A DNA stretch of 38,217 nt from Paracoccaceae bacterium. GTDB taxonomy: Bacteria > Pseudomonadota > Alphaproteobacteria > Rhodobacterales > Rhodobacteraceae. The notes beneath the pieces are model-generated. The model saw only the letters and a list, made by a program, of their open reading frames with translations, was not told the DNA's origin and searched no databases. Both the position numbers and the translations under genes were made by a program. The number at the start of each line of letters is the position of its first letter. The stretch's first letter is position 1. The stretch covers positions 1 to 38,217 of the forward strand of contig JAIXPH010000043.1 of the NCBI GenBank assembly GCA_027486345.1, read 5' to 3'. This document shows, one piece after another, positions 5,018-30,804 of the stretch.

Positions 5018-5221
5018 GGCCCAAGGCGGCTTTCCCAACCTCCCGTCCGGCTGCGACCCGCCTTTGGCGGTTCGGCCAGATTGGCCGCGCGACGCGTGCT
5101 TGTTACACCCATGGGGCGAAACGCGGCAAAGGTCCGCAACCAACCCTCACAAGCATCGGCGTGGAGGATGACCCCGGTTTTCCGGGTCTGGCCCCGCCTT
5201 GCCCGAATCCGGGACGCGACC

Positions 5222-7069
5222 ATGACCATCACGTATAATGACCAGATTTCCCTTTATACCAGTGGGCAGACCGCCCCGGCCTCCAACGCCTGGTTGGTGT
5301 CGGATTGGGCAGCGGGCCAGACCTCCAACATGAACTGGGAGGCCGACAATGTCCGCCGCACCGCGACCGGCGCGGTCGAACTGGTGCTGGACAGATCCGC
5401 GCCCGGGGCCTCGCGCCCCTATGCGGGTGGGGAAATCCAGTCCGATGCAAGTGCGACGACCGGCACCTTCGCCTGGCATGCCAAGGCCCCGGTGATGCGG
5501 CCGGGCGCGGTCTTCGGCCTGTTCACCTATCGCGCCGATTGGCAGAACCAGCCCTGGGTCGAGTTCGATTTCGAATTCGTCGGCGCGGACACCACCAAGG
5601 TGCAACTGAACATCCACATGGAGAACGCGGCTGGCCAGCATGTCTCGTTGGCGGAAAAGAAGGGTGCGCCGATCATCGTCGATCTTGGCTTCGATGCGGC
5701 GCAGGGGGTGCATGACTACAAGGTGGTGATTGCCGCGCAGGGGGCCACCTTCCTTGTCGATGGCAAGGTGGTGGGGGTCTATGGCCCGGCCGACATGCCG
5801 CAGGGCGTTTGGCAGCTTGGCCCGATGAAAAGCTATGTCGATCTGTGGTGCGCGCAGGGTCTGGACGCTTGGGCGGGCACTTGGGCAGGTGGCCCCACGC
5901 CGCTGGTGGCCCGGCTGGACGGGGTCGAGGTGCGGGCGGGCGACCTGACCGCCGCCGCCCCGGCCGTGGCACCAGTCCCCGCCGGGGCGGATGATTTCGC
6001 CAACCTGCTGATCGGCACGGCGGGCGCGGACCTGATCGATGGCAAGGGCGGCCATGACACGCTGCAAGGCGGCGCGGGCCATGACAGCCTGCGCGGCGGG
6101 GCCGGGGATGACCACATCGGCCTCGACAGCGGCAATGACCTGATCGACGGCGGCACTGGCAGCGACTGGCTGGACATCGGAGCGATGGCGGCGACGGTCG
6201 ATCTGGCGCTGACCGGCGGGCAGGGGACGGGCTATGGCAGCGACACGATCACCGGGATCGAGAATGTCGCGGGCGGCGCAGGCGCGGACCGCATCCTCGG
6301 CGACGACGGCGCGAACCGGCTGATCGGCAATGACGGGGCCGACACGCTGACCGGGCGCGGCGGCGCGGATGTGATCGACGGCGGTCTGGGCGATGACGTC
6401 CTGACCGGTGGTCTGGGCAACGATGCCTTGACCGGCGGGGCCGGAGCGGACCTGCTGCGGCTGGATGGCGGCGACGATGTGGTGGAGGGCGGCGACGGGG
6501 TGGACACGCTGTTCTACACCGGCACGGCATCCCTGGTGGTGAACCTGTCGCTGACCGGCGCGCAGGCCACCGGCACGGGCACCGACATCCTGCGCGGGAT
6601 CGAGAATGTGACCGGCGATGCGGGGGCGGATCGGCTGACAGGCTCGGCGCTGGCCAATGTCCTGAGCGGCGGGGGCGGGGCGGATACGCTCAACGGTGGG
6701 GCGGGGGCCGACAGCCTGCTGGGCGGGACCGGACGCGATGTGATGTCGGGCGGTGCCGACAGGGACCGGGATGTCTTTGTGTTCAACAGCATCGCCGACA
6801 GCGCGGTCGGGTCGCCGCGGGATGTGGTGCAGTCTTTCCTCTCGGGCATAGACGACATCGACCTGCGCGGGATCGACGCCAATGGCGGCATGGCGGGGGA
6901 CCAGTCCTTTGCCTTTGCCGGATCGACTGCCGCGGCCCATGCGGTCTGGGTCACGGCGGCGGGTGCCGACCTGATCCTGAGCGGCGATGTGACGGGCGAC
7001 GCGCGGGCGGATTTCCAGATCGGGCTGACCGGCGTGGCGGCCCTGATCGCGGCGGATCTGCTGCTGTGA
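5222..7069 (+). CDS. Secreted GH16 glycanase with RTX repeats and serralysin-type C-terminus
   Basis: This protein has 615 residues. The N-terminal 240 residues form a GH16 beta-jelly-roll. The signature VEFDFEFVG at 113-121 gives the retaining catalytic triad E114 (nucleophile), D116 and E118 (acid/base); PGAVFGLFTYRADWQNQPW precedes it as in bacterial licheninase/ExsH-ExoK glycanases. A linker (241-258) leads to Ca-binding RTX nonapeptides at about 262-312, 350-430 and 468-512 (for example GGAGHDSL, GGLGNDAL, GGAGADSLL), and residues 515-615 resemble the serralysin C-terminal domain that carries the type I secretion signal. There is no Sec signal peptide, consistent with ABC-type (type I) export. 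ExsH of Sinorhizobium, which trims succinoglycan, has the same design, so cutting of the cell's own or a competitor's exopolysaccharide is likely; the substrate is not proven. No exporter genes are nearby. Confidence 0.88.
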   Translation: MTITYNDQISLYTSGQTAPASNAWLVSDWAAGQTSNMNWEADNVRRTATGAVELVLDRSAPGASRPYAGGEIQSDASATTGTFAWHAKAPVMRPGAVFGLFTYRADWQNQPWVEFDFEFVGADTTKVQLNIHMENAAGQHVSLAEKKGAPIIVDLGFDAAQGVHDYKVVIAAQGATFLVDGKVVGVYGPADMPQGVWQLGPMKSYVDLWCAQGLDAWAGTWAGGPTPLVARLDGVEVRAGDLTAAAPAVAPVPAGADDFANLLIGTAGADLIDGKGGHDTLQGGAGHDSLRGGAGDDHIGLDSGNDLIDGGTGSDWLDIGAMAATVDLALTGGQGTGYGSDTITGIENVAGGAGADRILGDDGANRLIGNDGADTLTGRGGADVIDGGLGDDVLTGGLGNDALTGGAGADLLRLDGGDDVVEGGDGVDTLFYTGTASLVVNLSLTGAQATGTGTDILRGIENVTGDAGADRLTGSALANVLSGGGGADTLNGGAGADSLLGGTGRDVMSGGADRDRDVFVFNSIADSAVGSPRDVVQSFLSGIDDIDLRGIDANGGMAGDQSFAFAGSTAAAHAVWVTAAGADLILSGDVTGDARADFQIGLTGVAALIAADLLL

Positions 7070-11628: not shown

Positions 11629-12528
11629 ATGACCGCGAAATCCCGTTTGCCGCCGCTCAACGCCCTGCGCGTGTTTCATGCCGTCGTCCGTCACCGGTCG
11701 CTGCGCGAGGCGGCGGAAGAGCTTTATGTCACCCCGCAGGCGGTGGGCCAGCAGATCAAGTTGCTGGAGGATGCGCTCGGCATCGTGCTGATGGAACGCG
11801 AGGGGCGCGGCATCCGCCTGACGGAAAAGGCGATCACGCTGTCGCATTACGTGGCGGCAGGCTTTGCCGAGTTCGAGGAAGGTCTGCGCCGCGTCACCGG
11901 CCCGCGCGACCGGGACCGCATCAACCTGAACGTCAGCCCCTATTTCGGCACGCGTTTCCTGATGCCGCGCTTGGCCGATTTCCGCCAAGCCGTGCCAGAG
12001 GCAGAGATCGGCCTGACCACGATGATCGATCTTGTGGACCTTGAGCGGGACCAGATCGACCTTGCCGTGCAATGGGGCTATGGCGACCGGCGCGATGTGG
12101 AAAGCGCCTTGCTGCTGCGCGACCCCAAGGTGATCTGTTGCCGCCCGGATATGGCGGCGCGGATCACTGGCCCGCAGGATTTGCTGGCGTTTCCCTTGCT
12201 GCAACCCGCCCGGTCGCGGCGGTTGTGGCCGGATATCCTGTCCTATCTCGGTCTTCCGGTGTCCGAGCTGGACCGCAGCCTGACCTTTGACGATTCCGCC
12301 ACCATGCGCCGCGCCGCGCAACAGGGTCTGGGCGTCGGGTTGGTGTCAATGCTGGACGCGCAAGAGGACATCGCCGCTGGCAGTTTGGTCGCGCCCTTGG
12401 GGGTGGAGGCGTTGTCGGGGATGCCAGAGGGGTCGGTTCCGGGCTTCTATCTGATCACCACCAAATCGCGGTTGCGGGCAAAACATGTCGCCGCCCTGCA
12501 CCGCTGGCTGTTGGCGCAACGCTGGTAG
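11629..12528 (+). CDS. GcvA-type LysR transcriptional regulator
   Basis: This 299-residue protein begins MTAKSRLPPLNALRVFHAVV, the start typical of the GcvA subfamily, with a winged helix-turn-helix at about 20-65 (SLREAAEELYVTPQAVGQQI, then KLLEDALG) and a periplasmic-binding-like effector domain from about 95. The effector domain includes DLERDQIDLAVQWGYGD and ends SRLRAKHVAALHRWLLAQRW. LysR proteins bind a small coinducer, usually a pathway intermediate, and activate an adjacent operon. Here the downstream ThDP-hyuAB-aminotransferase-SDR-DAO operon starts 124 nt later on the same strand, so the effector is probably a substrate or intermediate of that pathway. The start at 11629 is the only one giving a standard N-terminus; longer frames to 11245 run into motA on the other strand. 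Confidence 0.85.
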   Translation: MTAKSRLPPLNALRVFHAVVRHRSLREAAEELYVTPQAVGQQIKLLEDALGIVLMEREGRGIRLTEKAITLSHYVAAGFAEFEEGLRRVTGPRDRDRINLNVSPYFGTRFLMPRLADFRQAVPEAEIGLTTMIDLVDLERDQIDLAVQWGYGDRRDVESALLLRDPKVICCRPDMAARITGPQDLLAFPLLQPARSRRLWPDILSYLGLPVSELDRSLTFDDSATMRRAAQQGLGVGLVSMLDAQEDIAAGSLVAPLGVEALSGMPEGSVPGFYLITTKSRLRAKHVAALHRWLLAQRW

Positions 12529-12652: not shown

Positions 12653-14320
12653 ATGCTCAGGAATGGCGGTCAGGTCTTGGTCGAAAGCCTTGTGGCGCTT
12701 GGCGCGACAAAGGCCTTCGGGGTGCCGGGGGAAAGCTATCTGGCGGTGCTGGATGCGCTGCACGACACCGAAGGCAAGCTTGATTTCATCAACTGCCGGA
12801 ACGAAGGGGGTGCCGCCTTCATGGCCGCCGCATGGGGCAAGCTGACCGGCAGTCCGGGCATCTGCCTCGTGACGCGCGGGCCGGGGGTAACCAATGCCGC
12901 CATCGGCATCCATACCGCGATGCAGGATTCCGCGCCGATGATGGTCTTTGTCGGCCAAGTTGGCACCGACATGATCGGGCGCGAAGCGTTTCAGGAAATC
13001 GACTACCGCGCCGTCTTTGGCACGATGGCGAAATGGGCGGTGCAGATTGATGCGCTGGACCGGATGCCGGAAATCCTTGGCCGCGCTTGGGTGACGGCCA
13101 CCACCGGGCGGCCCGGTCCCGTGGTCGTGGCTTTGCCCGAGGATATGCTGACCAGCCTGACCGAAGCCGCGCCCTTGCAAGGCCCCACTCGCATTGCTGA
13201 GGCCGCCCCCGATGCGGCGACGCTGGCCGACGCCTTGTCGCTGCTCTCCACCGCCGAACGCCCGTTGATCCTGATGGGCGGCTGCAACTGGACGGGGGCG
13301 GGGCGGGCCGCGCTGCAAGCCTTCGCCGAGGCCAGCGACATCCCCGTGGTTGCGGCCTTCCGTTATCAGGATCAGTTCGACAACTTCTCTCCGGTCTATG
13401 CCGGTGAGGCCGGGGTGGGCATGCCCGCCAACGTCAAACGCCTGATCGCGCAGGCCGATGTGATCCTTGCCGTCAATGTGCGCTTTGGTGAGATGACGAC
13501 TGATGGTTACACACTGCTGTCGGTCCCTGTGGCGCGGCAAAAGCTGATCCATGTGCATGGGTCGGACCGTGAGATCGGCAAAATCTACCAGCCCACCCTT
13601 GGCATCCATGCCGGCCCGAACGCCTTTGCCGCCGCCTTGTCGCCGGTCACGGGCGGATGGTCTGCATGGCGCGCGCAGGCACGGGCGGAGTGGGAGGCGA
13701 GCTTTGATTTGCCCCCCCAACCCTCGCCCGTCGATATGGGTATCGTCACCGCTCATCTGCGCGATGTCTTGCCCGAGGATGCCATTCTGACCAATGGCGC
13801 GGGGAATTTCACTGTCTGGCCGAACAAGTTCTATAAATTCGGGGCCAAGGCGCGGCTTCTGGCACCGCAATCGGGCGCAATGGGTTATGGCCTGCCCGCC
13901 GCGATTGCCGCCAAGATTGCCCATCCTGACCGCCGGGTAGTCTGCTTTGCCGGGGATGGCGATTTCCAGATGAACTGTCAGGAACTGGCCACCGCGCTGC
14001 AATATGGCGCGCAACCCATCGTGCTGATCCTGAACAACGGCATTTACGGCACCATCCGCGCCCATCAAGAGCGCGAATACCCCACCCGCGTGTCGGGCAC
14101 CGCGATGGTCAACCCCGACTTCGCGGCCCTCGCCCGTGCCTACGGCTTTCATGCCGAGCGCGTCGAACGGACCGAGGATTTCGCCGCCGCCTTTGACCGC
14201 GCCTTGGCGTCGGACAGAGGCGCGGTCCTTGACCTTGATATCTCGCCCGAGGCGCTGACCCCGCGCATGACCCTGAGTCAAATCCGCGCTGCAGCCTTGG
14301 CCAAGCAGGTGAAGCCATGA
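12653..14320 (+). CDS. Thiamine-diphosphate-dependent enzyme (acetolactate-synthase-like)
   Basis: This 555-residue protein has the three-domain ThDP fold. The N-terminal PYR domain has GVPGESYLAVLDAL (23-36) and RNEGGAAFMA with catalytic E51, the glutamate that activates ThDP. The middle domain spans about 190-320. The C-terminal PP domain carries the cofactor motif GDG at 434-436 with NN at 461-462 (GDG-x24-NN), then GIYGTIRAHQEREYP. The family decarboxylates or ligates 2-keto acids (acetolactate synthase, benzoylformate decarboxylase, sulfopyruvate or oxalyl-CoA decarboxylases). The operon holds an aminotransferase that could supply the keto acid. It is the first gene after the LysR regulator and overlaps hyuA by 4 nt (ATGA). 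I chose the ATG at 12653 because upstream residues lack family similarity. Exact reaction unknown. Confidence 0.85.
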   Translation: MLRNGGQVLVESLVALGATKAFGVPGESYLAVLDALHDTEGKLDFINCRNEGGAAFMAAAWGKLTGSPGICLVTRGPGVTNAAIGIHTAMQDSAPMMVFVGQVGTDMIGREAFQEIDYRAVFGTMAKWAVQIDALDRMPEILGRAWVTATTGRPGPVVVALPEDMLTSLTEAAPLQGPTRIAEAAPDAATLADALSLLSTAERPLILMGGCNWTGAGRAALQAFAEASDIPVVAAFRYQDQFDNFSPVYAGEAGVGMPANVKRLIAQADVILAVNVRFGEMTTDGYTLLSVPVARQKLIHVHGSDREIGKIYQPTLGIHAGPNAFAAALSPVTGGWSAWRAQARAEWEASFDLPPQPSPVDMGIVTAHLRDVLPEDAILTNGAGNFTVWPNKFYKFGAKARLLAPQSGAMGYGLPAAIAAKIAHPDRRVVCFAGDGDFQMNCQELATALQYGAQPIVLILNNGIYGTIRAHQEREYPTRVSGTAMVNPDFAALARAYGFHAERVERTEDFAAAFDRALASDRGAVLDLDISPEALTPRMTLSQIRAAALAKQVKP

Positions 14321-16398
14321 CCATCCGACTGGGGGCAGACATCGGCGGCACCTTCACCGACATCGTGCTGGACTGTCGGGGCAAGATGACCTCCACCAAG
14401 GTGCTGACCAATTACGCCGCCCCCGAACAGGCCATTCTGGACGGGATGGATCAGGTGCTGGCCGAGGCCGGGATTGGCTATGGTGATTTGGAGATCGTGA
14501 TCCACGGCACCACCCTTGCCACCAATGCGCTGATCGAACGGCGTGGGGCCAAGGTGGCCTTTGTCACCACCGAAGGCTTCCGCGACGTGATCGAGATGCG
14601 GACCGAAAGCCGCTTTGACCAATATGATCTGAACCTGACCCTGCCCACGCCCTTGGTCCCGCGAGAGGACCGCTTTCCCGTCAAGGGCCGCATCGGCGCG
14701 CAGGGCCAGGAACTTGCACCGCTGGATGAGGCGGGTTTGCAGGCGCTGGCGGAACGGATAGCGGCGGGCGGTTATGGTGCGGTGGCGATCGGGTTCATCC
14801 ATTCCTACCTGAACCCCGCCCATGAACGCCGCGCGCGGGAAATCATCGCGGCGGTCTGCGATCTGCCGGTGTCGATTTCGTCCGACGTCTCGCCCCAAAT
14901 GCGCGAGTTTGAACGCTTCAACACCGTCTGCGCGAATGCTTACGTCCGCCCGCAGATGGCCAGCTATCTGGACCGTTTGCAGGTGCGCCTGACGGAGCGC
15001 GGCGCGGGCTGCCCGGTGTTCATGATCCATTCGGGTGGCGGTCTGGTCTCGGTTCAGACGGCGGCGGAATTCCCGGTGCGGCTGGTGGAATCCGGCCCCG
15101 CCGGGGGGGCCATCTTCGCCGCCGATGTGGCGCAGCGTTTTGGGCTGGGCCGGGTCGTCAGCTATGACATGGGAGGCACCACCGCCAAGATCTGCCTGAT
15201 CGAGGATTTCTCTCCCAAAACCGCCCGCAGCTTTGAGGTGGCGCGGACGACCCGCTTTGCCAAAGGCTCTGGCATGCCGATCTCGATCCCGGTGATCGAG
15301 ATGATCGAGATTGGCGCAGGCGGTGGCTCTCTCGCCCATGTCGATGCGATGGGGCGGATTCAGACCGGGCCGGAAAGCGCGGGGTCCGAACCCGGACCGG
15401 CCTGTTACCAGCGCGGCGGGATGCGGCCTGCGATCACCGATGCCGATCTGGTCTTGGGCAAGCTGGACCCCGACAACTTCGCCGGTGGGGCGATCAAGCT
15501 TTCCATGGACTTGGCCGAGGCCGCGATTGACCAGGATGTGGGTGCGCCCTTGTCCTTGGGGATTGAAGCCGCCGCCTTTGGCATCGCCGAGGTGGTGGAT
15601 GAGAACATGGCCAACGCCGCCCGCGTCCATGCCGTGGAAAGCGGCAAGAACATCGCCGACAACATGATGGTGGCCTTTGGCGGGGCCGCCCCCCTGCACG
15701 CCGCGCGGCTGTGTGAGAAACTGGGCATCGACCGCTGCCTGATCCCGCAAGGCGCGGGGGTGGGGTCGGCCATCGGGTTCCTGAAAGCGCCGTTTGGCTA
15801 TGAATCGCTGGCCTCGCGGATCATCCCGCTTTCCGCCTTTGACCCGGCAGCATTCAACGCGCTGATTGCCGATTTGAAGGCGACGGCGGAGCGTTTTGTC
15901 CGCCAAGGCACCGCTGGCGCGATCCAAAGTGAGATCACCGCCTTCATGCGCTATCGCGGGCAAGGGTGGGAGATTCCGGTGCCCTTGCCGGATCATCCCT
16001 TTGACGCGGGCGATGCCGACCTGATCCGGGGGCAATTCCTTGACGCCTATGCCCGCTTCTTTGGTCGCGCGATTGACGGGCTGTCGGGGTTGGAGATTGA
16101 GGTGGTCACTCTGTCCGTCAAATCCGCCGATGAGCGCCCCGCTCCGGAACGGGTCGCGCTTACAATGGGCAGCCGTGCGGTGCAAGTGACGGAATGGCGC
16201 GACGTCTTCGATCCCTCCTCTGCCCGGATGCTGCAAACCGGGATTGTCGCGCGGGACTCGCTGGCGTCGGGCGACAGGCTCTCTGGCCCCGTCGTGATCG
16301 TGGAACGCGAAACCTCAACCGTCGTGACTGCGCCCTTTGATGTGGTAGTGCAGGCGGATGGGTCGCTGTTGATGCTTCGGAAGGGGTCGTCGAAATGA
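14317..16398 (+). CDS. hyuA: HyuA-type hydantoinase/oxoprolinase A subunit
   Basis: This 693-residue protein is normal length for HyuA. The N-terminal Hydant_A_N domain opens with the ATP-binding phosphate-1 motif ADIGGTFTDIVL (6-17), followed by the IHGTTLATNALIERRGAKVAFVTT block. The central domain has SGPAGGAIFAADVA and YDMGGTTAKICLIED, and a later HNMxxAxRxHxxExGxN-like stretch reads ENMANAARVHAVESGKN. These are hallmarks of the ATP-dependent ring-opening subunit that acts with HyuB on hydantoins, 5-oxoproline, N-methylhydantoin or caprolactam; a related scaffold is used by acetone and acetophenone carboxylases. It overlaps the ThDP gene and hyuB by 4 nt each, implying coupled translation. 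The family is firm; the substrate is unknown. Confidence 0.92.
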   Translation: MTIRLGADIGGTFTDIVLDCRGKMTSTKVLTNYAAPEQAILDGMDQVLAEAGIGYGDLEIVIHGTTLATNALIERRGAKVAFVTTEGFRDVIEMRTESRFDQYDLNLTLPTPLVPREDRFPVKGRIGAQGQELAPLDEAGLQALAERIAAGGYGAVAIGFIHSYLNPAHERRAREIIAAVCDLPVSISSDVSPQMREFERFNTVCANAYVRPQMASYLDRLQVRLTERGAGCPVFMIHSGGGLVSVQTAAEFPVRLVESGPAGGAIFAADVAQRFGLGRVVSYDMGGTTAKICLIEDFSPKTARSFEVARTTRFAKGSGMPISIPVIEMIEIGAGGGSLAHVDAMGRIQTGPESAGSEPGPACYQRGGMRPAITDADLVLGKLDPDNFAGGAIKLSMDLAEAAIDQDVGAPLSLGIEAAAFGIAEVVDENMANAARVHAVESGKNIADNMMVAFGGAAPLHAARLCEKLGIDRCLIPQGAGVGSAIGFLKAPFGYESLASRIIPLSAFDPAAFNALIADLKATAERFVRQGTAGAIQSEITAFMRYRGQGWEIPVPLPDHPFDAGDADLIRGQFLDAYARFFGRAIDGLSGLEIEVVTLSVKSADERPAPERVALTMGSRAVQVTEWRDVFDPSSARMLQTGIVARDSLASGDRLSGPVVIVERETSTVVTAPFDVVVQADGSLLMLRKGSSK

Positions 16399-18014
16399 CC
16401 GCACAGGACCAGACCCGTGAGATTCACATGCAGGTCATGTGGAACCGCCTGATTTCCGTGGTGGAAGAACAGGCGATGACCCTGCTGCGCACCGCCTTTT
16501 CCACATCGGTGCGTGAAGCGGGCGATCTGTCGGCGGGTGTGTTTGACCCGCAGGGCCGGATGCTGGCCCAGGCCGTCACCGGCACCCCCGGCCATGTGAA
16601 CACGATGGCCGAGGCGGTGCTCCATTTCATCACCGAGATTGGCCGGGAAAACATGTTCCCCGGCGATACCTATGTGACCAATGATCCGTGGAAGGGCACG
16701 GGACATTTGCACGACATCACGATGGTGTCGCCCAGTTTCAAGGGCGATGTTCTGGTGGGGTTCTTTGCCTGCACCGCCCATGTCGTCGATGTCGGCGGGC
16801 GCGGCTTTGGTGCGGATGCGAAGTCGGTCTATGAAGAGGGCATCCAACTTCCGATCATGAAATTCGCCGAACGAGGCACGGTCAATGCCACGCTGGTGGC
16901 CTTGCTTCGGTCCAACGTGCGCGAACCGGATCAGGTGGTGGGGGATTTCTACTCTCTCGCCGCGTGCAACGATGTGGGCCACCGCCGCCTGATCGCGATG
17001 ATGGAGGAGATTGGTCTTTCGACCCTCGACGATCTGGCCGAGTTCATCTTTTCCCGCACCCGCAAGGCGACGCTGGACCGGATCGCCGCCCTGCCGCGCG
17101 GGACATGGACCAACCGCATGGTGACGGATGGCTATGACAAACCCGTCACGCTGGTCGCCACGGTGGAAACCCGCGATGACACGGTGAATGTCGATTTCGG
17201 CGGCACGGATGGCGTCAGCCGCTGGGGCATCAATGTGCCGATCATCTACACCAAGGCCTATGCCTGCTATGCGCTGAAATGCGTGGTGGCCCCGGATATC
17301 CCGAACAACTGGGCCTCGTTGGAACCCTTCACCATCTCCAGTCCCGAAAACATCCTGAACGCCCCCCGGCCCGCGCCGGTGGCTTTGCGCCATGTCTTTG
17401 GCCATATGGTCCCCGATCTTGTGCTGGGCGCTTTGGCCCAAGCCCTGCCGGGACGCATCCTCGCCGAAGGGGCGGCGGCCTTGTGGAACATCCACATGTC
17501 GGTGCGCCCGGTGAAGGGGGGCGCGGGACGGCGGGCGGAGATTTTGATGTTCAACTCGGGTGGCATGGGCGCACGGCCCGCGCAAGATGGCCTTGCCGCC
17601 ACAGCCTTTCCGTCGGGCGTGATGACCATGCCGATTGAAGCGACCGAGCAGACCGGCCCCGTGGTGATCTGGCGCAAGGAGTTGCGGCCTGACTCCGGCG
17701 GCGATGGGCAGTATCGCGGCGGTTTGGGGCAGATCATTGAGATTGAACCTGCGCAGGGCCATGAGTTCGACTTTTCCGCCATGTTCGACCGCACCCGCAT
17801 CGCGCCTCGCGGGCGGGATGGCGGGCAGGACGGGGCCAAAGGGTCGGCGATGCTGGATGATGGCACCGAATTGAATCCCAAGGGTTGGCAGCATGTGCCC
17901 GCCGGTCGACGCTTGGTCCTGCACCTGCCGGGGGGCGGCGGCTTCGGCGATCCGGCGCAGCGCGATCCGGCGGCGCGGGCGGCAGATGTGGCGAAGGGCT
18001 ATGTGACCAAATGA
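16395..18014 (+). CDS. hyuB: HyuB-type hydantoinase/oxoprolinase B subunit
   Basis: This 539-residue protein has the HyuB features REAGDLSAGVFDPQGRMLAQ, GTPGHVNTM, PGDTYVTNDPWKGTGHLHD and FACTAHVVDVGGRG in the N-terminal half, with GTDGVSRWGINVP mid-protein. Near the C-terminus are RPDSGGDGQYRGGLGQ and the terminal LPGGGGFGDPAQRDP motif. HyuB carries part of the active site and forms a heteromer with HyuA for ATP-driven hydrolysis of cyclic amides. It starts within the hyuA stop (ATGA) and its own stop overlaps the aminotransferase start in the same way, so the locus is a continuous translational unit. Confidence 0.92.
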   Translation: MTAQDQTREIHMQVMWNRLISVVEEQAMTLLRTAFSTSVREAGDLSAGVFDPQGRMLAQAVTGTPGHVNTMAEAVLHFITEIGRENMFPGDTYVTNDPWKGTGHLHDITMVSPSFKGDVLVGFFACTAHVVDVGGRGFGADAKSVYEEGIQLPIMKFAERGTVNATLVALLRSNVREPDQVVGDFYSLAACNDVGHRRLIAMMEEIGLSTLDDLAEFIFSRTRKATLDRIAALPRGTWTNRMVTDGYDKPVTLVATVETRDDTVNVDFGGTDGVSRWGINVPIIYTKAYACYALKCVVAPDIPNNWASLEPFTISSPENILNAPRPAPVALRHVFGHMVPDLVLGALAQALPGRILAEGAAALWNIHMSVRPVKGGAGRRAEILMFNSGGMGARPAQDGLAATAFPSGVMTMPIEATEQTGPVVIWRKELRPDSGGDGQYRGGLGQIIEIEPAQGHEFDFSAMFDRTRIAPRGRDGGQDGAKGSAMLDDGTELNPKGWQHVPAGRRLVLHLPGGGGFGDPAQRDPAARAADVAKGYVTK

Positions 18015-19219
18015 GCTATGTCGCAGACCGCTTATCGTCCGTTAAACCCTCTGCCTCCATGGCCGCATCCATGGCGGCCAAGGCGCTGCGGGCCACGGGC
18101 GTCGATGTCATCGACCTTGGGCTGGGGGAGCCCGATTTCCCCACGCCCCCGCATATCGCCCAAGCCGCCCATGCGGCTGCGGTGAGGGGGGAGACGCTGT
18201 ACACCGCCGCCGCCGGAACCCCCGCCCTGCGCGCCGCCGTAGCCGAGAAGTTCCGGCGCGAGAATGGCTTGGACTATGGCCCGGATGACATCGTGGTGGC
18301 CAACGGGGCCAAGCAGATCATCTTCAACGCGCTGATGGCCACGCTGAATGACGGCGATCAGGCGATCATCCCGGCCCCCTATTTTGTCAGCTACCCGGAA
18401 ATGGTCAAACTTCTGGGCGGCGTTCCCGTCATGCCGGTCTGCGCCGCCGAGGATGGGTTCCGCCTGACGCCCGACGCCCTGCGCGCCGCGATCACGCCGC
18501 GCACGAAATGGCTGTTCCTGAACATGCCGGGCAATCCGTCAGGGGCTGCCTATTCCCGCGCCGATTTGCAGGCATTGAGGGCGGTCCTCGCGGATCATCC
18601 GCAGGTGCTGATCCTGTCGGATGAGATTTATGAGCATATCCTGTTTGACGGGCGGCAGTTCGTCAGCTTTGCCGCCGCCTGCCCGGATCTGCGTGAGCGG
18701 ACCTTGACCGTCAACGGTGTGGCCAAGGCCTATGCGATGACAGGCTGGCGGGTGGGCTATGCGGCGGGGCCTGCGCCGCTGCTGCGGGCGATGAACACGG
18801 TGCAAAGCCAATCCGTCACCTCTGTCGCAGCCCCGATGCAGGCGGCGGCGCTGGCGGCACTGACCGGGCCACAAGACTGCATCCCGCAGTTTCGCGCGGC
18901 GTTCCAGCGGCGGCGCGATCTGGTGGTGGCGGGGATTGCGGGCATCCCCGGCCTGACCCTGCCGCCGCCCGAAGGTGCGTTTTACGCCTATATCGGCTGC
19001 GCCGGTCTGATCGGCAAACGCACGCCAAAGGGCGATCTCCTGACCGATGATACCGCCGTCGCACAGTATCTGCTGCACGAAGGCCATGTCGCCTCGGTCC
19101 CCGGCGCGGCCTATGGCCTGTCGCCGTTCTTTCGCATTTCCACTGCAACTTCTGACGCCCTGCTGGTCGAGGCCATCGCTCGCATCAGCCGCGCCGTCGC
19201 CGCCCTATCGGAGGCGTGA
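18011..19219 (+). CDS. Class I/II PLP-dependent aminotransferase
   Basis: This 402-residue protein is a fold-type I aminotransferase of the aspartate aminotransferase I-gamma group. Visible landmarks are GLGEPDFPTP (37-46), ANGAKQIIFNAL for cofactor binding (98-109), PAPYFVSYPE (121-130) and NMPGNPSG with N175. SDEIYE carries D204, and NGVAKAYAMTGWRVGY contains the Schiff-base lysine K239. An FFRIST segment near the end supplies the carboxylate-binding Arg. It moves an amino group to or from a keto acid such as pyruvate or oxaloacetate. In this operon it would deaminate the amino acid released by ring opening, giving a keto acid for the ThDP enzyme, or the reverse. The start at 18011 overlaps hyuB by 4 nt. 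Confidence 0.9.
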   Translation: MSYVADRLSSVKPSASMAASMAAKALRATGVDVIDLGLGEPDFPTPPHIAQAAHAAAVRGETLYTAAAGTPALRAAVAEKFRRENGLDYGPDDIVVANGAKQIIFNALMATLNDGDQAIIPAPYFVSYPEMVKLLGGVPVMPVCAAEDGFRLTPDALRAAITPRTKWLFLNMPGNPSGAAYSRADLQALRAVLADHPQVLILSDEIYEHILFDGRQFVSFAAACPDLRERTLTVNGVAKAYAMTGWRVGYAAGPAPLLRAMNTVQSQSVTSVAAPMQAAALAALTGPQDCIPQFRAAFQRRRDLVVAGIAGIPGLTLPPPEGAFYAYIGCAGLIGKRTPKGDLLTDDTAVAQYLLHEGHVASVPGAAYGLSPFFRISTATSDALLVEAIARISRAVAALSEA

Positions 19220-20037
19220 TGACCAAACCTTATGACACGATCCTGTTGACCGGGGCCGCTGGCCGTCTTGGCACCCAGTTGCGCCGGGGCCTTGCGCCGC
19301 TCTGCAACCGTCTGCGGCTGGCGGATCGGGTGGCGATCACCGACCTTGCCCCCAATGAAGAGGCGTTGACTTTTGACCTTGCCGATGAGGCGGCGGTGAT
19401 GGCTGCGGCCAAGGACGTGCAGGCCATCGTCCACTTCGGCGGTGCGCCCTTGGAACGCCCGTGGGAAGAGGTGCTGAACGCCAATATCCGGGGCAGCTAT
19501 CACATCTACGAGGCCGCCCGCAAAAACGGCGTCCGCCGCGTGGTCTATGCCAGTTCCGTGCATGCCATCGGCTATCACCGGCTGGAGGATCAGATCGACG
19601 CCAACGCTCCGCACCGCCCCGATGGCCTTTACGGTCTGTCGAAATGCTTTGTCGAGGATCTGGGCCGTCTTTACTGGGACAAGTTCGGGATCGAGACGGC
19701 CGCGCTGCGCATCTTCTCTTCCTTCCCCGAACCGGCGGACCGGCGGATGCTGTGGTCTTGGCTGTCGTTTGACGATTGCAACCGGCTGGTCAGCGCCGCG
19801 CTGACCGCGCCGCGCGTGGGGTTCACGGTGTCGTTTGGCATGTCCGACAACCGCGTGAAACCCGTGGACAACCGCCTTGCCGCGCATCTGGGCTATGTCC
19901 CGCAGGACAACACCGAACCCTTCCGCGCCGGGGTGGAGGCCAAGACCCCGACCCCAGACCCCAAAGCCCCCGCGGCGCAGCACTTGGGCGGTTGGTTCGT
20001 CGATCTGGGCCACCCGGATGATGAGGTGACGGCATGA
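19219..20037 (+). CDS. NAD(P)-dependent extended SDR, uronate-dehydrogenase-like
   Basis: This 272-residue Rossmann protein has the nucleotide motif TGAAGRLG (11-18), a short-chain-dehydrogenase active site ASSVHAIGYHR with catalytic Ser-113 region, and Y138/K142 in LYGLSKC. The segment RIFSSFPEPADRRMLWSWLS and the later SFDDCNRLV strongly resemble uronate dehydrogenases (SCFPEPxDRRMLxTWLS, YDD). Those oxidise C1 of a uronic acid to an aldarolactone with NAD+. In this context the enzyme could oxidise a hemiacetal, lactol or alcohol intermediate rather than a sugar acid. I chose the ATG at 19219 over GTG at 19216: GGAGG lies 4 nt from the ATG. It overlaps the aminotransferase by 1 nt and the oxidase by 4 nt. 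Confidence 0.82.
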   Translation: MTKPYDTILLTGAAGRLGTQLRRGLAPLCNRLRLADRVAITDLAPNEEALTFDLADEAAVMAAAKDVQAIVHFGGAPLERPWEEVLNANIRGSYHIYEAARKNGVRRVVYASSVHAIGYHRLEDQIDANAPHRPDGLYGLSKCFVEDLGRLYWDKFGIETAALRIFSSFPEPADRRMLWSWLSFDDCNRLVSAALTAPRVGFTVSFGMSDNRVKPVDNRLAAHLGYVPQDNTEPFRAGVEAKTPTPDPKAPAAQHLGGWFVDLGHPDDEVTA

Positions 20038-21242
20038 AAGCGTCTTACGATGTGGTGATCGTCGGCGGGGCCGTCATCGGATCGGCGGTCGCCTATTTCC
20101 TGATGGCGAATCCGGATTTCAACGGCTCGGTTCTGGTGGTCGAACGCGACCCGACCTATCGCCACGCCTCGACCTCGCTGTCGGCCGCGTCGATCCGGAC
20201 GCAGTTTTCCAACCCGATCAACGTCAAGATCAGCCAATTCGGCACGCGCTTCATTCAGGACTTCGCCCAGACCATGCAGGTGGCGGGTGAGGCCGCGCCC
20301 GATCTGAACTTCCACTCCGGCGGCTATCTGTTTCTGGCGGGGACAGAGGCACAGGAACAGACCCTGCGCGAAAACCATGCCGTGCAGGTGGCCTGTGGCG
20401 CGGATGTGGTGCTGTGGGATCAGGCAGCACTGCATCGCGCCTTCCCGCATCTGAACGTCGATGACATCCGTCTTGCCAGCTATGGTCAATCGGGCGAGGG
20501 GTGGTTTTCCAACACTGGCCTGATGAACGGCTTTCGCGCCAAGGCGCGGGCGTTGGGGGCAGAGGTCGTGACCGATGAGGTGGTGGCCATCGGGCGCAGT
20601 GGCAACGCGGTGCATTCGGTCACGCTGAAATCCGGCGCGGTGATTGCGGCGGGCACCATCGTCAACGCCTCGGGTCCGCGTGCGGCGCTGACCGCGCGGA
20701 TGGCGGGTCTGGATGTGCCGGTGGAGCCGCGAAAGCGTACGCTTTTCGTCTTTGACTGCGCCCAAACGCCCGAAGGCAGCGCCACGGTCAACGGCGGCCG
20801 TCTGCCGCTGATGATCGACCCGTCCGGCGTGTTCTGCCGGCCAGAGGGGCGCTATTTCCTGTCCGGGGCGGTGCCCGTGGAGGACCCCGCAGTGGATTGG
20901 GACGATTTCGAACCCCGCTGGGCGGAGTTCGAGGATCAGATCTGGCCGATGCTGGCGGCACGTTCGCCGCAGTTCGAGGCGATCAAGGTCGTCAACCAAT
21001 GGGCCGGGCATTACGATTTCAACACTCTGGACCACAATCTGATCGTCGGGCGGCATCCGGAGGTGACGAATTTCGTCTTTGCCAACGGCTTTTCGGGGCA
21101 TGGGTTGCAACAGGGCCCCGCCGCCGGGCGCGGGGTGTCGGAACTCATCACCTACGGCGGCTACCGCACGCTGGACCTGACCGAAGTGGGATATGAGCGG
21201 ATCATCGAGAACCGGCCCTTCCTTGAAAAGGCCGTGATCTGA
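20034..21242 (+). CDS. DAO-family FAD-dependent oxidoreductase
   Basis: This 402-residue protein is of the DadA/sarcosine oxidase beta/FOXRED1 type. The FAD Rossmann motif is VVIVGGAVIGSAVAYFL (7-23) followed by VVERD. RHASTSLSAASIRTQFSNP is the DAO-like region, AGTIVNASGPRA the second FAD contact, and C-terminal NFVFANGFSGHGLQQGPAAG is the conserved flavin-covering segment. Members oxidise the C-N bond of amino or N-methyl amino acids to an imine. Together with HyuA/HyuB this recalls creatinine/N-methylhydantoin breakdown, where sarcosine is oxidised, but ThDP and SDR enzymes are not part of that route. It is the last gene of the operon, convergent with sbcC across 19 nt. Confidence 0.87.
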   Translation: MKASYDVVIVGGAVIGSAVAYFLMANPDFNGSVLVVERDPTYRHASTSLSAASIRTQFSNPINVKISQFGTRFIQDFAQTMQVAGEAAPDLNFHSGGYLFLAGTEAQEQTLRENHAVQVACGADVVLWDQAALHRAFPHLNVDDIRLASYGQSGEGWFSNTGLMNGFRAKARALGAEVVTDEVVAIGRSGNAVHSVTLKSGAVIAAGTIVNASGPRAALTARMAGLDVPVEPRKRTLFVFDCAQTPEGSATVNGGRLPLMIDPSGVFCRPEGRYFLSGAVPVEDPAVDWDDFEPRWAEFEDQIWPMLAARSPQFEAIKVVNQWAGHYDFNTLDHNLIVGRHPEVTNFVFANGFSGHGLQQGPAAGRGVSELITYGGYRTLDLTEVGYERIIENRPFLEKAVI

Positions 21243-28205: not shown

Positions 28206-28344
28206 CCTGCCGCGCAAACCCGATGCCGAAAACGCATGATACGCGTTTGGAATGACGCATGTTACAAAGGCGTCACAGCCCCCGTTGCCGCACAGCGGCC
28301 GCGGGCGTAGCTGTCGGGGCACAAAGCAGCGGGGCATGTGGGCC

Positions 28345-29271
28345 ATGGAACTGGACTGGATCGAGGATTTCCTGGCGCTGGCCGACCTTGGCGTGTTTTC
28401 CAAGGCGGCGATGCGCCGCAACGTCACGCAACCCGCCTTTACCCGCCGCATCCGCAAGCTGGAATATGCCGTGGGCGCGGTGCTGTTCGACCGCTCGGTC
28501 CACCCGGTCGTGCTGACCCCGGCGGGAGAGGATTTCCGCCCCACCGCGCTGGAAATGGTCCGCATGCTGGCATCCGCCCGGTCGCGGCTGCGCAGCCAGA
28601 CGGCGGCGGGCGAGATGGTGACCATTGCCTCTCTGCAAGCGCTGGCGATTTCCTTTTTGCCGCCGCTGATCAGCGCGATCTACGCCGCCCGCACCCCGCC
28701 TGCGATCAAGGTGATGGCCGATGACATGGCGGGTTGCCTTGAGGCGCTGTTGACCGGCTCCGCCGACATCCTGCTGACCTATTCACATCCTGACATCATC
28801 ACCTCGCAGATCGTCGATACCTTCGCCGCCTTGTCGGTGGCCGAGGATCGGATGGTCGCGGTCAGCGGGGCCGGGGCGGACGGCACACCGCTTTATGAAC
28901 TGGATGACCCGCGCATCCCTTACCTGCGCTATTCGGACGAAAGCTTTCTGGGCAAGCTGACCGCGCGGATCTTGTCGGATCACGAAGACCTCGCCCGTCG
29001 CTTGGACCCGAAGTATCAGAATTCCATGGCCGATGGCCTGAAGGCCGCCGCCCGCGCCGGCTTGGGTGTGGCGTGGTTGCCCTTGCAGGTGGCCGGGGAT
29101 GATCTGGACCAAGGCCGCCTTGTCCGGATTTCCGCCCCCGATCAGGAGGCAGAGATCGAAATCGCCATGTTCCGCGATCCGGTGGAAAAGTCCCGACCCG
29201 TGGAAAAACTGTGGTCCGACATCCGCCGCCGGATCGACGGCCTGAAACCTGCCGCCGTCGCGGCGGGCTGA
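28345..29271 (+). CDS. LysR-family transcriptional regulator
   Basis: This 308-residue protein opens MELDWIEDFLALADLGVFSK, the standard LysR start, with the helix-turn-helix at about 16-40 (AAMRRNVTQPAFTRRIRKLE) and the effector-binding domain from about 90. I preferred the ATG at 28345 over 28336 (MWAMELDW) because the family begins MELDWL; neither has a strong ribosome site. The glutamate dehydrogenase gene starts 103 nt downstream on the same strand, so the regulator may control it. The 139-bp leader upstream contains AAACGC/GCGTTT inverted arms (28230-28248) and two ACGCATG copies (28232 and 28255), a possible autoregulatory site. Confidence 0.85.
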   Translation: MELDWIEDFLALADLGVFSKAAMRRNVTQPAFTRRIRKLEYAVGAVLFDRSVHPVVLTPAGEDFRPTALEMVRMLASARSRLRSQTAAGEMVTIASLQALAISFLPPLISAIYAARTPPAIKVMADDMAGCLEALLTGSADILLTYSHPDIITSQIVDTFAALSVAEDRMVAVSGAGADGTPLYELDDPRIPYLRYSDESFLGKLTARILSDHEDLARRLDPKYQNSMADGLKAAARAGLGVAWLPLQVAGDDLDQGRLVRISAPDQEAEIEIAMFRDPVEKSRPVEKLWSDIRRRIDGLKPAAVAAG

Positions 29272-29294
29272 GTTTAACCGAAACGACGCAAGTT

Positions 29295-29312
29295 CCGTTC
29301 AGACTGGAACGG
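29295..29312. promoter_or_regulatory. Interrupted palindrome upstream of glutamate dehydrogenase
   Basis: CCGTTC (29295-29300), 6 nt, GAACGG (29307-29312) is a perfect inverted repeat located 62 nt before the gdh start, between the lysR stop and gdh. It could bind the adjacent LysR protein or another dimeric regulator. The embedded GGAAC lacks a CGTT at the right distance, so it is not an EcfG promoter. Confidence 0.4.
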
Positions 29313-29373
29313 GCACCGCCCTTTTGGGGCGATTGATACCACATGCGCATCCGCGCCAAGGGAGGATTGACCC

Positions 29374-30804
29374 ATGCTGACCACCACCGAACCCAGTTTC
29401 CGCGAATCCGTCGATCTGATGTTCCACCGCGCGGTGAAGCACATGGACCTGTCGCCGGGGCTGGCCGAAAAGATCCGCGTCTGCAACTCCACCTACACCG
29501 TCCGCTTCGGTGTCCGCCTGCGCGGCAAAATGGAGACCTTCACCGGATACCGCTCCGTCCATTCCGAACATATGGAACCGGTGAAAGGCGGCATCCGCTA
29601 TGCCCTGTCGGTGCATCAGGATGAGGTGGAGGCGCTGGCTGCCTTGATGACCTATAAATGCGCCTTGGTGGAAACGCCCTTTGGCGGATCGAAGGGCGGT
29701 CTCTGCATCGACCCGCGCCAATGGGATGAGCATGAGCTGGAACAGATCACCCGCCGCTTTGCCTATGAGCTGATCAAGCGCGACCTGATCCACCCGGCCC
29801 AGAACGTTCCCGCCCCCGACATGGGGACAGGGGAACGTGAAATGGCATGGATCGCCGACCAATACGCGCGGATGAATACAACCGACATCAATGCCAAGGC
29901 CTGCGTGACCGGCAAACCACCGCATGCGGGCGGGATTCAGGGCCGGGTGGAGGCGACGGGGCGCGGTGTGCAATTCGCCCTGCGCGAATTCTTCCGCCAC
30001 CCCGAGGATGTGGCGCTGGCCCATCTGTCCGGCGGGCTTGAGGGCAAGCGCGTGATCGTCCAAGGCCTTGGCAATGTGGGCTATCACGCCGCGAAGTTCC
30101 TGAGCGAAGAGGACGGCGCGATCATCACCGCCATCATCGAACGCGACGGAGCGCTGGTCAGTGACACCGGCCTGTCGGTCGAGGATGTGAAGCGCCACCT
30201 CGCCACCACCGGCGGGCTTGCGGGCTATCCGGGGGCAACCTACTCCCCCGACGGCGCCGCCGCCTTGGAACTGCCCTGTGACATCCTGATCCCCGCCGCG
30301 CTGGAGGGCGTGATCAACCTGCACAACGCCGCCCGCATCCAAGCCCCGCTGATCCTTGAGGCCGCGAATGGCCCCATCACCTTTGGCGCCGACGAAATCC
30401 TGCGCCAAAAGGGCACGGTCATCATCCCCGACATGTATGCCAACGCAGGCGGGGTGACGGTCAGCTATTTCGAATGGGTCAAGAACCTGTCCCACATCCG
30501 CTTTGGCCGCATGCAGCGCCGGGCCGAAGAATCCCGCTCGCGCCTTCTGGTCGAAGAGTTGGAGCGGTTGTCCGCCGACCAACACCTCGGATGGACGCTG
30601 TCGCCCGATTTCAAGGAGAAATTCCTGACCGGATCGGATGAGCTGGCGCTGGTGCGGTCAGGTCTGGATGACACGATGCGCACCGCCTACCAGTCGATGC
30701 GCGAGATCTGGCACGGCCGCAAGGATGTCGAAGACCTGCGCGTCGCCGCCTATATCGTCGCCATTGACCGGGTGGCCAAGACCTATCGCAGCAAGGGTCT
30801 GTAA
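29374..30804 (+). CDS. gdhA: Glu/Leu/Phe/Val dehydrogenase (glutamate dehydrogenase)
   Basis: This 476-residue protein catalyses reversible oxidative deamination of glutamate (or related amino acids) to 2-oxoglutarate and ammonia. Landmarks are the substrate loop VKGGIRY (70-76), catalytic-site TPFGGSKGGLCIDP with K107, PAPDMGTGEREMAW (146-159), the Rossmann motif VQGLGNVGYHAA (229-240) and YANAGGVTVSYFEW. The length is in the range of GdhA/GudB-type enzymes. A GGGAGG lies 8 nt upstream. It links nitrogen release by the nearby aminotransferase and oxidase pathways to central metabolism, although that functional link is only inferred. It is preceded by a LysR gene. Confidence 0.9.
   Translation: MLTTTEPSFRESVDLMFHRAVKHMDLSPGLAEKIRVCNSTYTVRFGVRLRGKMETFTGYRSVHSEHMEPVKGGIRYALSVHQDEVEALAALMTYKCALVETPFGGSKGGLCIDPRQWDEHELEQITRRFAYELIKRDLIHPAQNVPAPDMGTGEREMAWIADQYARMNTTDINAKACVTGKPPHAGGIQGRVEATGRGVQFALREFFRHPEDVALAHLSGGLEGKRVIVQGLGNVGYHAAKFLSEEDGAIITAIIERDGALVSDTGLSVEDVKRHLATTGGLAGYPGATYSPDGAAALELPCDILIPAALEGVINLHNAARIQAPLILEAANGPITFGADEILRQKGTVIIPDMYANAGGVTVSYFEWVKNLSHIRFGRMQRRAEESRSRLLVEELERLSADQHLGWTLSPDFKEKFLTGSDELALVRSGLDDTMRTAYQSMREIWHGRKDVEDLRVAAYIVAIDRVAKTYRSKGL

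What the first reader, a model, noticed from the sequence alone, without database searches (positions are those of the whole stretch)
12653..21242. Six-gene ThDP-HyuA-HyuB-aminotransferase-SDR-FAD oxidase operon with dedicated LysR regulator: a probable undescribed catabolic pathway
All five junctions overlap by 1-4 nt, so the six enzymes form one translational unit. HyuA/HyuB open cyclic amides with ATP (hydantoins, 5-oxoproline, N-methylhydantoin, caprolactam), aminotransferase and DAO oxidase remove amines, the ThDP enzyme acts on a 2-keto acid, and the SDR resembles uronate dehydrogenase. Creatinine and caprolactam routes share some parts, but I know of no route with this complete set. Working model: ring opening gives an amino or N-alkyl amino acid, then deamination, then keto-acid decarboxylation or ligation and oxidation of the product.
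Basis: partly seen in the sequence, partly recalled or inferred. Interest (0 to 1): 0.72.

Follow-up and report, generated by a model that had tools for sequence, protein, structure and literature searches.

The report
Conserved lactam-forming amino-acid degradation operon
A six-enzyme gene string found in many soil and sea bacteria looks like an undescribed way to break down ring-shaped amino acids, by turning the ring into a lactam and opening it with ATP; which amino acid it eats is not known.

Summary
The six genes are real, at the stated coordinates; all five junctions can be 4-nt overlaps. LysR lies 124 nt upstream. The set is not local: the same six-gene order occurs in Paracoccus, Roseovarius, Roseobacter, Shinella, Pseudochrobactrum and Rhizobium, and a permuted form in Rhizobium, Pararhizobium and Pseudomonas; a same-genus genome lacks it. 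Companions in part of the clusters: two classical SDRs, an ALDH, a GlcD/YdiJ-type D-2-hydroxyacid dehydrogenase, ETF genes, amino-acid ABC transporters, a GarL-like aldolase with GarR. Ten literature searches found no pathway with this set. I favour a lactam route: the DAO enzyme oxidises a cyclic imino acid; the uronate-dehydrogenase-like SDR oxidises the cyclic hemiaminal (an isostere of a uronate) to a lactam; HyuAB opens it with ATP to a 2-amino-dicarboxylate; the aminotransferase makes the 2-oxo acid; the ThDP enzyme decarboxylates it. Substrate unknown: 5-hydroxypipecolate-like or 4-hydroxyproline-like fits best. Conservation is shown; every enzymatic step is inferred. A control weakened the flavoenzyme argument: an unrelated DAO protein has the same top structural hit.

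The parts
11629..12528 (+). LysR regulator, GcvA-like
   Evidence: Pfam HTH_1 + LysR_substrate; GcvA model 214.8 of cut-off 288; relatives (about 51-61%, 69% in L179) sit in related clusters, mostly downstream of DAO
12653..14320 (+). ThDP-dependent enzyme, PRK08199 subfamily; proposed 2-oxo acid decarboxylase
   Evidence: NF006052 776.8 bits, over cut-off 539; below the cut-offs of the acetolactate synthase models listed; E51, F113, Q114, K127, R277 invariant in 17 sequences
14317..16398 (+). HyuA, ATP-binding subunit of proposed lactamase
   Evidence: Pfam; best PDB hit N-methylhydantoinase 7hk5, E 3.3e-108, then 5-oxoprolinase 6yra
16395..18014 (+). HyuB, hydrolytic subunit
   Evidence: Pfam Hydantoinase_B 486.5 bits
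18011..19219 (+). class I aminotransferase, aspartate-aminotransferase-like; proposed 2-amino-dicarboxylate transaminase
   Evidence: PRK06107 527.2 of cut-off 617; best PDB hits aspartate aminotransferases 6f35 and 6f77
19216..20037 (+). uronate-dehydrogenase-like SDR; proposed cyclic-hemiaminal dehydrogenase (lactam-forming)
   Evidence: 47-49% identical to solved uronate dehydrogenases; separate branch and altered substrate-site residues
20034..21242 (+). FAD-dependent DAO-family oxidoreductase; proposed cyclic imino acid dehydrogenase
   Evidence: Pfam DAO; model's top three Foldseek rows are entries of two archaeal L-proline dehydrogenases, but controls are mixed

Best explanation
The operon is the core of an undescribed pathway for a cyclic imino acid (proline or pipecolate type, probably hydroxylated), working through a lactam. 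Steps: (1) the DAO flavoenzyme oxidises the ring C-N bond away from the carboxylate; (2) the product, as its cyclic hemiaminal (5-hydroxyproline or 6-hydroxypipecolate type), is oxidised by the uronate-dehydrogenase-like SDR to the lactam (5-oxoproline or 6-oxopipecolate type); (3) HyuAB opens the lactam with ATP to a 2-amino-dicarboxylate; (4) the aminotransferase gives the 2-oxo-dicarboxylate; (5) the ThDP enzyme decarboxylates it to a semialdehyde, which an ALDH and, for a hydroxylated substrate, a D-2-hydroxyacid dehydrogenase finish. Shown: genes, families, conservation, companions. Inferred: every reaction and its order.
For: Family set and operon. Gene set conserved in Rhodobacterales, Rhizobiales, Pseudomonas and Paraburkholderia. 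A uronate and 6-hydroxypipecolate have the same layout (ring heteroatom flanked by C-OH and C-COOH); in 38 of 38 UDH-type rows Tyr136, Lys140, Ser165 and Arg174 (A. tumefaciens numbering) are kept, while Ser75 is lost in 28 of 32 cluster rows and Asn112 in 26 of 32, against 0 of 6 rows taken as true uronate dehydrogenases (rows L055 and L137 are one gene); those 6 form a separate clade (96/91). 6-oxopipecolate is proposed to form by oxidation of 6-hydroxypipecolate by an unidentified aldehyde dehydrogenase in humans (PMC11670438, passages). A HyuAB-type pair that opens a lactam with ATP is known: caprolactamase (PMC6061476, passages). DAO model: first three rows are L-proline dehydrogenase entries. 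ThDP relatives share loci with P6C dehydrogenase (L045, L084, L123) and, in L084, with 2-aminoadipate transaminase and HglS, all over cut-off; the L084 ThDP is 75% identical to that of a Hyu cluster. ALDH, GlcD-like or YdiJ (over cut-off in L044) and ETF genes in part of the clusters fit a D-2-hydroxyacid end. RidA in some clusters fits an imine.
Against: No activity of these enzymes or their orthologues was found in the papers seen. The DAO top hit is not specific: one of two control DAO proteins also has 1y56_B first, and with the family profile dimethylglycine dehydrogenase ranks above the Aeropyrum enzyme. Asn112 is kept in 6 of 32 cluster rows. The roles of Ser75, Asn112 and Arg174 are recalled, not read. 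Usual imino acid routes use an ALDH on the open aldehyde and need neither lactam nor ATP, so the reason for a detour is unexplained. The co-travelling SDR pair, AroE-like protein and GarR have no assigned step. Intact HyuAB is beside the SDR in 13 of 26 family stretches fetched (decayed pieces in two more). The window's genome has no close copy of the companion ALDH, GlcD-like oxidase or aldolase. L084 has HglS for 2-oxoadipate, so its ThDP would be redundant there.
Confidence: 0.37

Rival explanations
1. One reading: HyuAB is the entry enzyme for an external cyclic amide (hydantoin, N-methylhydantoin from creatinine, lactam or 5-oxoproline); the released amino acid is deaminated and decarboxylated.
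For: Best PDB hit of HyuA is an N-methylhydantoinase; the DAO enzyme matches sarcosine oxidase models weakly.
Against: Far below the caprolactamase cut-offs; no carbamoylase, carbamoylsarcosine amidase or creatininase is part of the operon; it gives the uronate-dehydrogenase-like SDR no role, although that SDR is in every one of the five complete plasmid loci.
Confidence: 0.15
2. Degradation of an amino- or imino-uronate (or other sugar-like amino acid): the SDR acts on the sugar-type hemiacetal, and GarL/GarR-type enzymes finish a 2-keto-3-deoxy-hexarate.
For: SDR is 47-49% identical to uronate dehydrogenases; in L038 a GarL-like aldolase (below its cut-off) and a GarR over one cut-off (TIGR01505, 397.3 of 340.75; below two others), with relatives in six more clusters; a DAO-aldolase-UDH trio in L138.
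Against: Those genes were not seen in most clusters (flanks are limited) nor in the window; Ser75 and Asn112 of uronate dehydrogenase are mostly replaced; the linked transporters are annotated as amino-acid type.
Confidence: 0.15
3. Degradation of an N-methyl (betaine-derived) cyclic amino acid: HyuAB opens an N-methyl-lactam and the DAO enzyme is an N-demethylase.
For: HyuA close to N-methylhydantoinase; DAO profile also matches dimethylglycine dehydrogenase and sarcosine oxidase; in Planktomarina L088 HyuAB lie near a GcvT-domain protein; MocDE-type oxygenase genes beside the Rhizobium cluster L044.
Against: MocD and MocE at 40% identity or more only in L044 among 134 sequences scanned; no demethylase in the operon; no UDH-type SDR was found in the Planktomarina loci.
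Confidence: 0.13
4. The six genes are a functional mixture: HyuAB-DAO-SDR-aminotransferase serve one pathway and ThDP another general one.
For: ThDP relatives occur without HyuAB in most of the 80 loci returned; 52 of 295 family genomes have ThDP at 64% or more, 18 have the SDR at 60% or more, 15 both; the one same-genus genome in the sample has ThDP at 82% but no SDR match.
Against: Tight overlaps conserved in other genera.
Confidence: 0.15

Closest known systems
Caprolactam degradation, CapAB of Pseudomonas jessenii (PMC6061476, passages)
   Same: two-subunit ATP-dependent lactamase of the HyuA/HyuB families followed by an aminotransferase
   Different: its aminotransferase is a class-II omega type; no ThDP or uronate-dehydrogenase-like step in the passages seen; HyuA/HyuB here score far below the CapA/CapB cut-offs
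Bacterial lysine/pipecolate pathway through P6C, 2-aminoadipate and 2-oxoadipate (NCBIfam P6C dehydrogenase, aminoadipate transaminase, HglS)
   Same: proposed intermediates; ThDP relatives are encoded in such clusters
   Different: here SDR + HyuAB would replace P6C dehydrogenase, and a class I transaminase and a ThDP enzyme would replace the known ones; the window's genome has no P6C dehydrogenase over cut-off
Uronate dehydrogenase (3rft/3rfv, 3ay3, 6mfh)
   Same: fold and catalytic Tyr/Lys; TM 0.90-0.92
   Different: separate branch; Ser75 and Asn112 mostly replaced
Creatinine route through N-methylhydantoin (recalled)
   Same: HyuAB-type ATP hydrolase and a sarcosine-oxidase-superfamily enzyme
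   Different: no carbamoylsarcosine amidase; the ThDP enzyme, aminotransferase and SDR have no place in it

Membership tests
Caprolactamase CapA/CapB | score over NCBIfam NF050156 / NF050157 cut-off (1000 / 1000) | tested here: not met
   459.1 and 164.5 bits
Caprolactamase CapA/CapB | hydrolyses caprolactam with ATP | not testable with these tools
   needs enzyme assay
ATP-dependent hydantoinase/oxoprolinase superfamily | Hydant_A_N, Hydantoinase_A and Hydantoinase_B domains over gathering cut-off | tested here: met
Uronate dehydrogenase | fold and catalytic Tyr136/Lys140 | tested here: met
Uronate dehydrogenase | substrate-site Ser75 and Asn112 (roles recalled) and place in the clade of 3rft and 3ay3 | tested here: not met
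   window has Pro and Val; outside the six-row clade, support 96/91
Acetolactate synthase | score over an acetolactate synthase equivalog cut-off | tested here: not met
   best 361.9 of 538.35; none of those among the 25 rows shown is met (56 families matched, 25 shown)
PRK08199 ThDP subfamily | score over NF006052 cut-off 539 | tested here: met
   776.8 bits; the model is named only 'thiamine pyrophosphate protein'
Glyoxylate carboligase | lacks the ThDP-activating glutamate (recalled) | tested here: not met
   Glu51 invariant in 17 sequences
Aspartate transaminase PRK06107 | score over cut-off 617 | tested here: not met
   527.2 bits
L-proline/cyclic imino acid dehydrogenase of DAO fold | closest structural relatives are proline dehydrogenases | tested here: inconclusive
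   rows 1-3 in Foldseek, but one of two control DAO proteins also has 1y56_B first (the other ranks it sixth) and the profile search puts dimethylglycine dehydrogenase second
GcvA regulator | score over NF008352 cut-off 288 | tested here: not met
   214.8 bits

The most novel reading that the evidence does not exclude
A widespread catabolic route for hydroxylated cyclic imino acids in which a re-purposed uronate dehydrogenase oxidises the ring hemiaminal directly to a lactam, an ATP-dependent lactamase opens it, and a ThDP decarboxylase plus D-2-hydroxyacid dehydrogenase convert the product to 2-oxoglutarate (from 5-hydroxypipecolate) or oxaloacetate (from 4-hydroxyproline). It would bypass the semialdehyde dehydrogenase step of known proline, hydroxyproline and lysine pathways.
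Probability: 0.25. Interest if true: 0.7.

Novelty: new variant of a known kind. Interest (0 to 1): 0.5.

Why it matters
If right, it adds a lactam branch to imino acid breakdown, gives a function to the PRK08199 ThDP subfamily (whose model carries none) and to proteins now annotated only as hydantoinase/oxoprolinase family or NAD(P)-dependent oxidoreductase in rhizobial and Rhodobacterales plasmids, and points to a plant- or algae-derived amino acid used by root and marine bacteria. It also offers candidate enzymes for 6-oxopipecolate and related lactams.

Tried and rejected
Rejected: hydantoin, creatinine and caprolactam entry (no matching further enzymes in the operon). Rejected: ThDP as acetolactate synthase or glyoxylate carboligase. 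Considered and left open: unsubstituted pipecolate or lysine (does not need the D-2-hydroxyacid dehydrogenase); 4-hydroxyproline (D-malate end; YdiJ of E. coli and Pantoea is strict for D-2-hydroxyglutarate, but some other D2HGDHs take D-malate, PMC9504171, passages); amino-uronate; N-methyl substrate. A putA beside the SDR pair in the window's genome first looked like a link to proline; of 134 sequences scanned only L189 and L089 hold a putA at 45% identity or more, so I give it little weight.

Methods that failed: my first gene caller lost genes and was replaced (onward). The identity table picked a wrong window ORF (and wrong or no partners for L097 and L045), so only its L044, L084, L090, L093 and L123 values are used. 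The pdb_via library was not available. Ten literature searches found no description of the cluster; the library lacks most subscription papers. HyuA relatives are far wider than the operon (82 of 385 class genomes at E up to 1e-150; seven Hydant_A_N matches in the window's own genome); I did not open the neighbourhoods of the matches.
Full report
Six genes on the + strand (12653-21242) code for a ThDP enzyme, HyuA, HyuB, a class I aminotransferase, a uronate-dehydrogenase-like SDR and a DAO-family flavoenzyme. All five junctions are 4-nt overlaps, the fourth only if the SDR starts at GTG 19216; with ATG 19219 it is 1 nt. A LysR gene (11629-12528) ends 124 nt before the first. Upstream lie motA/motB-type genes on the other strand; downstream, also on the other strand, a 1242-aa ORF that looks like SbcC (by eye, not searched) and a metallophosphatase-domain ORF. 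So the operon is bounded.

It is conserved beyond close strains. Of these 80, 11 have HyuA and HyuB after ThDP in the window's order (L046, L047, L051, L052, L053, L054, L056, L057, L060, L065, L069), one more is cut by the contig end after HyuA (L048), and three carry the set in another order (L055, whose HyuA is seen in L137; L090; L093). Four of the 80 have all six in order (L052, L054, L057, L065). Of eight plasmid regions first opened, four have all six in order (L038, L040, L041, L042); L044 has the set permuted, L039 has it split into two blocks (one search shows the second), and L043 and L045 have only ThDP of the six. Of seven more regions opened, L130 has all six in order, L126, L128 and L131 the permuted set, L127 and L129 lack aminotransferase and ThDP in the annotation (PLSDB's gene table is incomplete), and L132 is the second block of L039.

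In the window's family (295 genomes searched) the SDR occurs at 60% identity or more in 18 genomes. I fetched 26 stretches: 17 from 16 of these 18 genomes (not the window's own, nor G273, a partial match), five with SDR at 50-56%, and four (L195-L198, 47-52%) meant as comparison. In the 26: DAO 17 (three reference types counted), ThDP 15, HyuA 13, HyuB 13, aminotransferase 9, LysR 8, the SDR pair 7; the four comparison stretches have none of these, so in the other 22 the counts are the same. L173 is a short contig cut after the SDR. The gaps between ThDP and the SDR in L181 and L187 hold decayed pieces of HyuA and HyuB, in L181 also of the aminotransferase: the set is being lost in some lineages. 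The only same-genus genome in the sample (G104) has ThDP at 82% but no SDR match at E up to 1e-55.

Companions. One of two neighbouring classical SDRs (SDR_b) was found at 55% identity or more in 28 of 134 sequences scanned, 26 distinct places (L134 and L135 overlap L051 and L060). In the family sample SDR_b occurs in 9 of 295 genomes, and all 9 are among the 18 with the operon-type SDR (hypergeometric 1.2e-12, not corrected for kinship). In seven of the nine it is on the same contig, within about 7 kb of an operon gene; in the other two, one of them the window's genome, it is on another contig. In the window's genome the pair (83% and 62% identical to that of P. seriniphilus) lies just upstream of a putA gene. 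Other companions at 50% identity or more, of the same 134 sequences: ALDH in 7 (the L038 copy is related to 2,5-dioxovalerate dehydrogenase but below its cut-off), a GlcD-like oxidase in 9, ETF in 3. A YdiJ-type protein is in 4 Rhizobium-type loci (L044, L126, L128, L131); the L044 copy is over the D-2-hydroxyglutarate dehydrogenase cut-off (1450.5 of 1350). A GarL-like aldolase with a GarR-like reductase is in 7 clusters (L038, L046/L133, L051/L134, L060/L135, L055/L137, L136, L179), and a partial aldolase stands at the contig start in L173. Aap- or Liv-type transporters are near several clusters. The window's genome has no close copy of the ALDH (39-40% at best), GlcD-like oxidase (41%) or aldolase (43%), so which of its enzymes would finish the pathway is not known.

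What the SDR may do. Its closest solved relatives are uronate dehydrogenases (model mean pLDDT 89). I aligned 32 cluster rows (31 different genes; L055 and L137 are one) with six taken as uronate dehydrogenases: 3rft, 3ay3 and four whose neighbours look like uronate genes by my reading of ORF starts. Tyr136, Lys140, Ser165 and Arg174 are kept in 38 of 38. Ser75 is kept in 6 of 6 against 4 of 32, Asn112 in 6 of 6 against 6 of 32 (25 Val, 1 Ile). The six form a clade (96/91; L138 is a long branch). That Arg174 binds the carboxylate and Asn112 and Ser75 sugar hydroxyls is recalled from the structure paper, which is not held. A hexuronate and 6-hydroxypipecolate share the same ring layout: heteroatom between C-OH and C-COOH. 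An SDR that keeps the carboxylate site and drops hydroxyl contacts would suit a hemiaminal of a cyclic imino acid and would give a lactam. Oxidation of 6-hydroxypipecolate to 6-oxopipecolate by an unidentified aldehyde dehydrogenase has been proposed in humans (PMC11670438, passages).

The lactam would explain HyuAB. The P. jessenii caprolactamase, a pair of the same families, opened caprolactam with ATP and had no detectable 5-oxoproline activity (PMC6061476, passages). The product here would be a 2-amino-dicarboxylate, matching an aspartate-aminotransferase-like enzyme.

The DAO enzyme. Its predicted structure (mean pLDDT 83) has three entries of two archaeal L-proline dehydrogenases first, then sarcosine oxidase subunits. 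As controls I searched two other DAO proteins by sequence: one ranks 1y56_B sixth, the other first. The profile of the operon's DAO family has 1y56_B first, dimethylglycine dehydrogenases next, then the Aeropyrum proline dehydrogenase. So proline-type oxidation is in keeping with the data but weakly supported; N-methyl oxidation is not excluded.

The ThDP enzyme. It belongs to PRK08199. Relatives at about 53-55% identity to the window share loci with P6C dehydrogenase (over cut-off) and a saccharopine-dehydrogenase-type protein in L045, L084 and L123, and in L084 also with 2-aminoadipate transaminase and HglS (both over cut-off). The L084 ThDP is 75% and 71% identical to the ThDP of the Pseudomonas Hyu clusters L090 and L093 and groups with them (SH-aLRT 97). 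This links the family to 2-oxoadipate-type acids, though HglS would already handle 2-oxoadipate in L084. In most of the 80 loci ThDP stands without HyuAB, so its role may be wider than this operon.

Substrate (inference). With 5-hydroxypipecolate the chain would end 5-hydroxy-2-oxoadipate, D-2-hydroxyglutarate semialdehyde, D-2-hydroxyglutarate, 2-oxoglutarate, which uses ALDH, YdiJ and ETF. With 4-hydroxyproline it would end 4-hydroxy-2-oxoglutarate, D-malic semialdehyde, D-malate, oxaloacetate, or be split by the aldolase to pyruvate and glyoxylate. E. coli and Pantoea YdiJ are strict for D-2-hydroxyglutarate while some other D2HGDHs accept D-malate (PMC9504171, passages). The aldolase clusters suit a 4-hydroxy substrate. 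I cannot choose; the clusters may even differ in substrate.

Literature. Ten full-text searches did not find this cluster described. One lead, an RpoN-linked hydantoinase operon in Paraburkholderia phymatum (PMC5979394, passages), names no such gene set in what I saw.

Verdict: a real, conserved operon of known enzyme families that I could not find described. Conservation is shown; chemistry is inferred.

Noticed in passing
window 31647-36255: Sugar-catabolic block: DeoC/LacD-type aldolase, GFO/IDH/MocA oxidoreductase, D-lyxose isomerase family protein, PfkB kinase and a LacI regulator on the other strand; looks like a separate sugar pathway.
   Followed up: no
window 5168-7066: Protein with a glycosyl hydrolase 16 domain followed by RTX calcium-binding repeats, perhaps a secreted glycanase.
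   Followed up: no
window 28336-30801: A second LysR gene directly before a glutamate/leucine-type dehydrogenase gene.
   Followed up: no
L160:9292-14331 (window's genome, contig C49): The SDR pair that elsewhere travels with the operon lies here just upstream of a putA gene, on another contig than the window.
   Followed up: partly
L181:8205-10017 and L187:7471-9540: Decayed remnants of HyuA and HyuB (in L181 also of the aminotransferase) between ThDP and SDR genes that are still open.
   Followed up: partly
L088, L089, L094 (Planktomarina): HyuA near relatives of a GcvT-domain protein and a large FAD-type ORF, with no uronate-dehydrogenase-like SDR found; HyuB seen in L088 and L089 (GcvT domain tested in L088 only). 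Perhaps a different HyuAB pathway tied to folate or N-methyl groups.
   Followed up: no
L084:2896-16940 (Pseudomonas benzenivorans): Lysine-type cluster with P6C dehydrogenase, aminoadipate transaminase, HglS and a PRK08199-like ThDP gene that starts 86 nt after HglS by my gene caller; I know of no ThDP enzyme of this kind in lysine breakdown (recalled).
   Followed up: partly
L183:9713-18130: An operon-type SDR stands beside a peptide-type ABC transporter and two ORFs that look like histidine-ammonia-lyase relatives (by eye).
   Followed up: no
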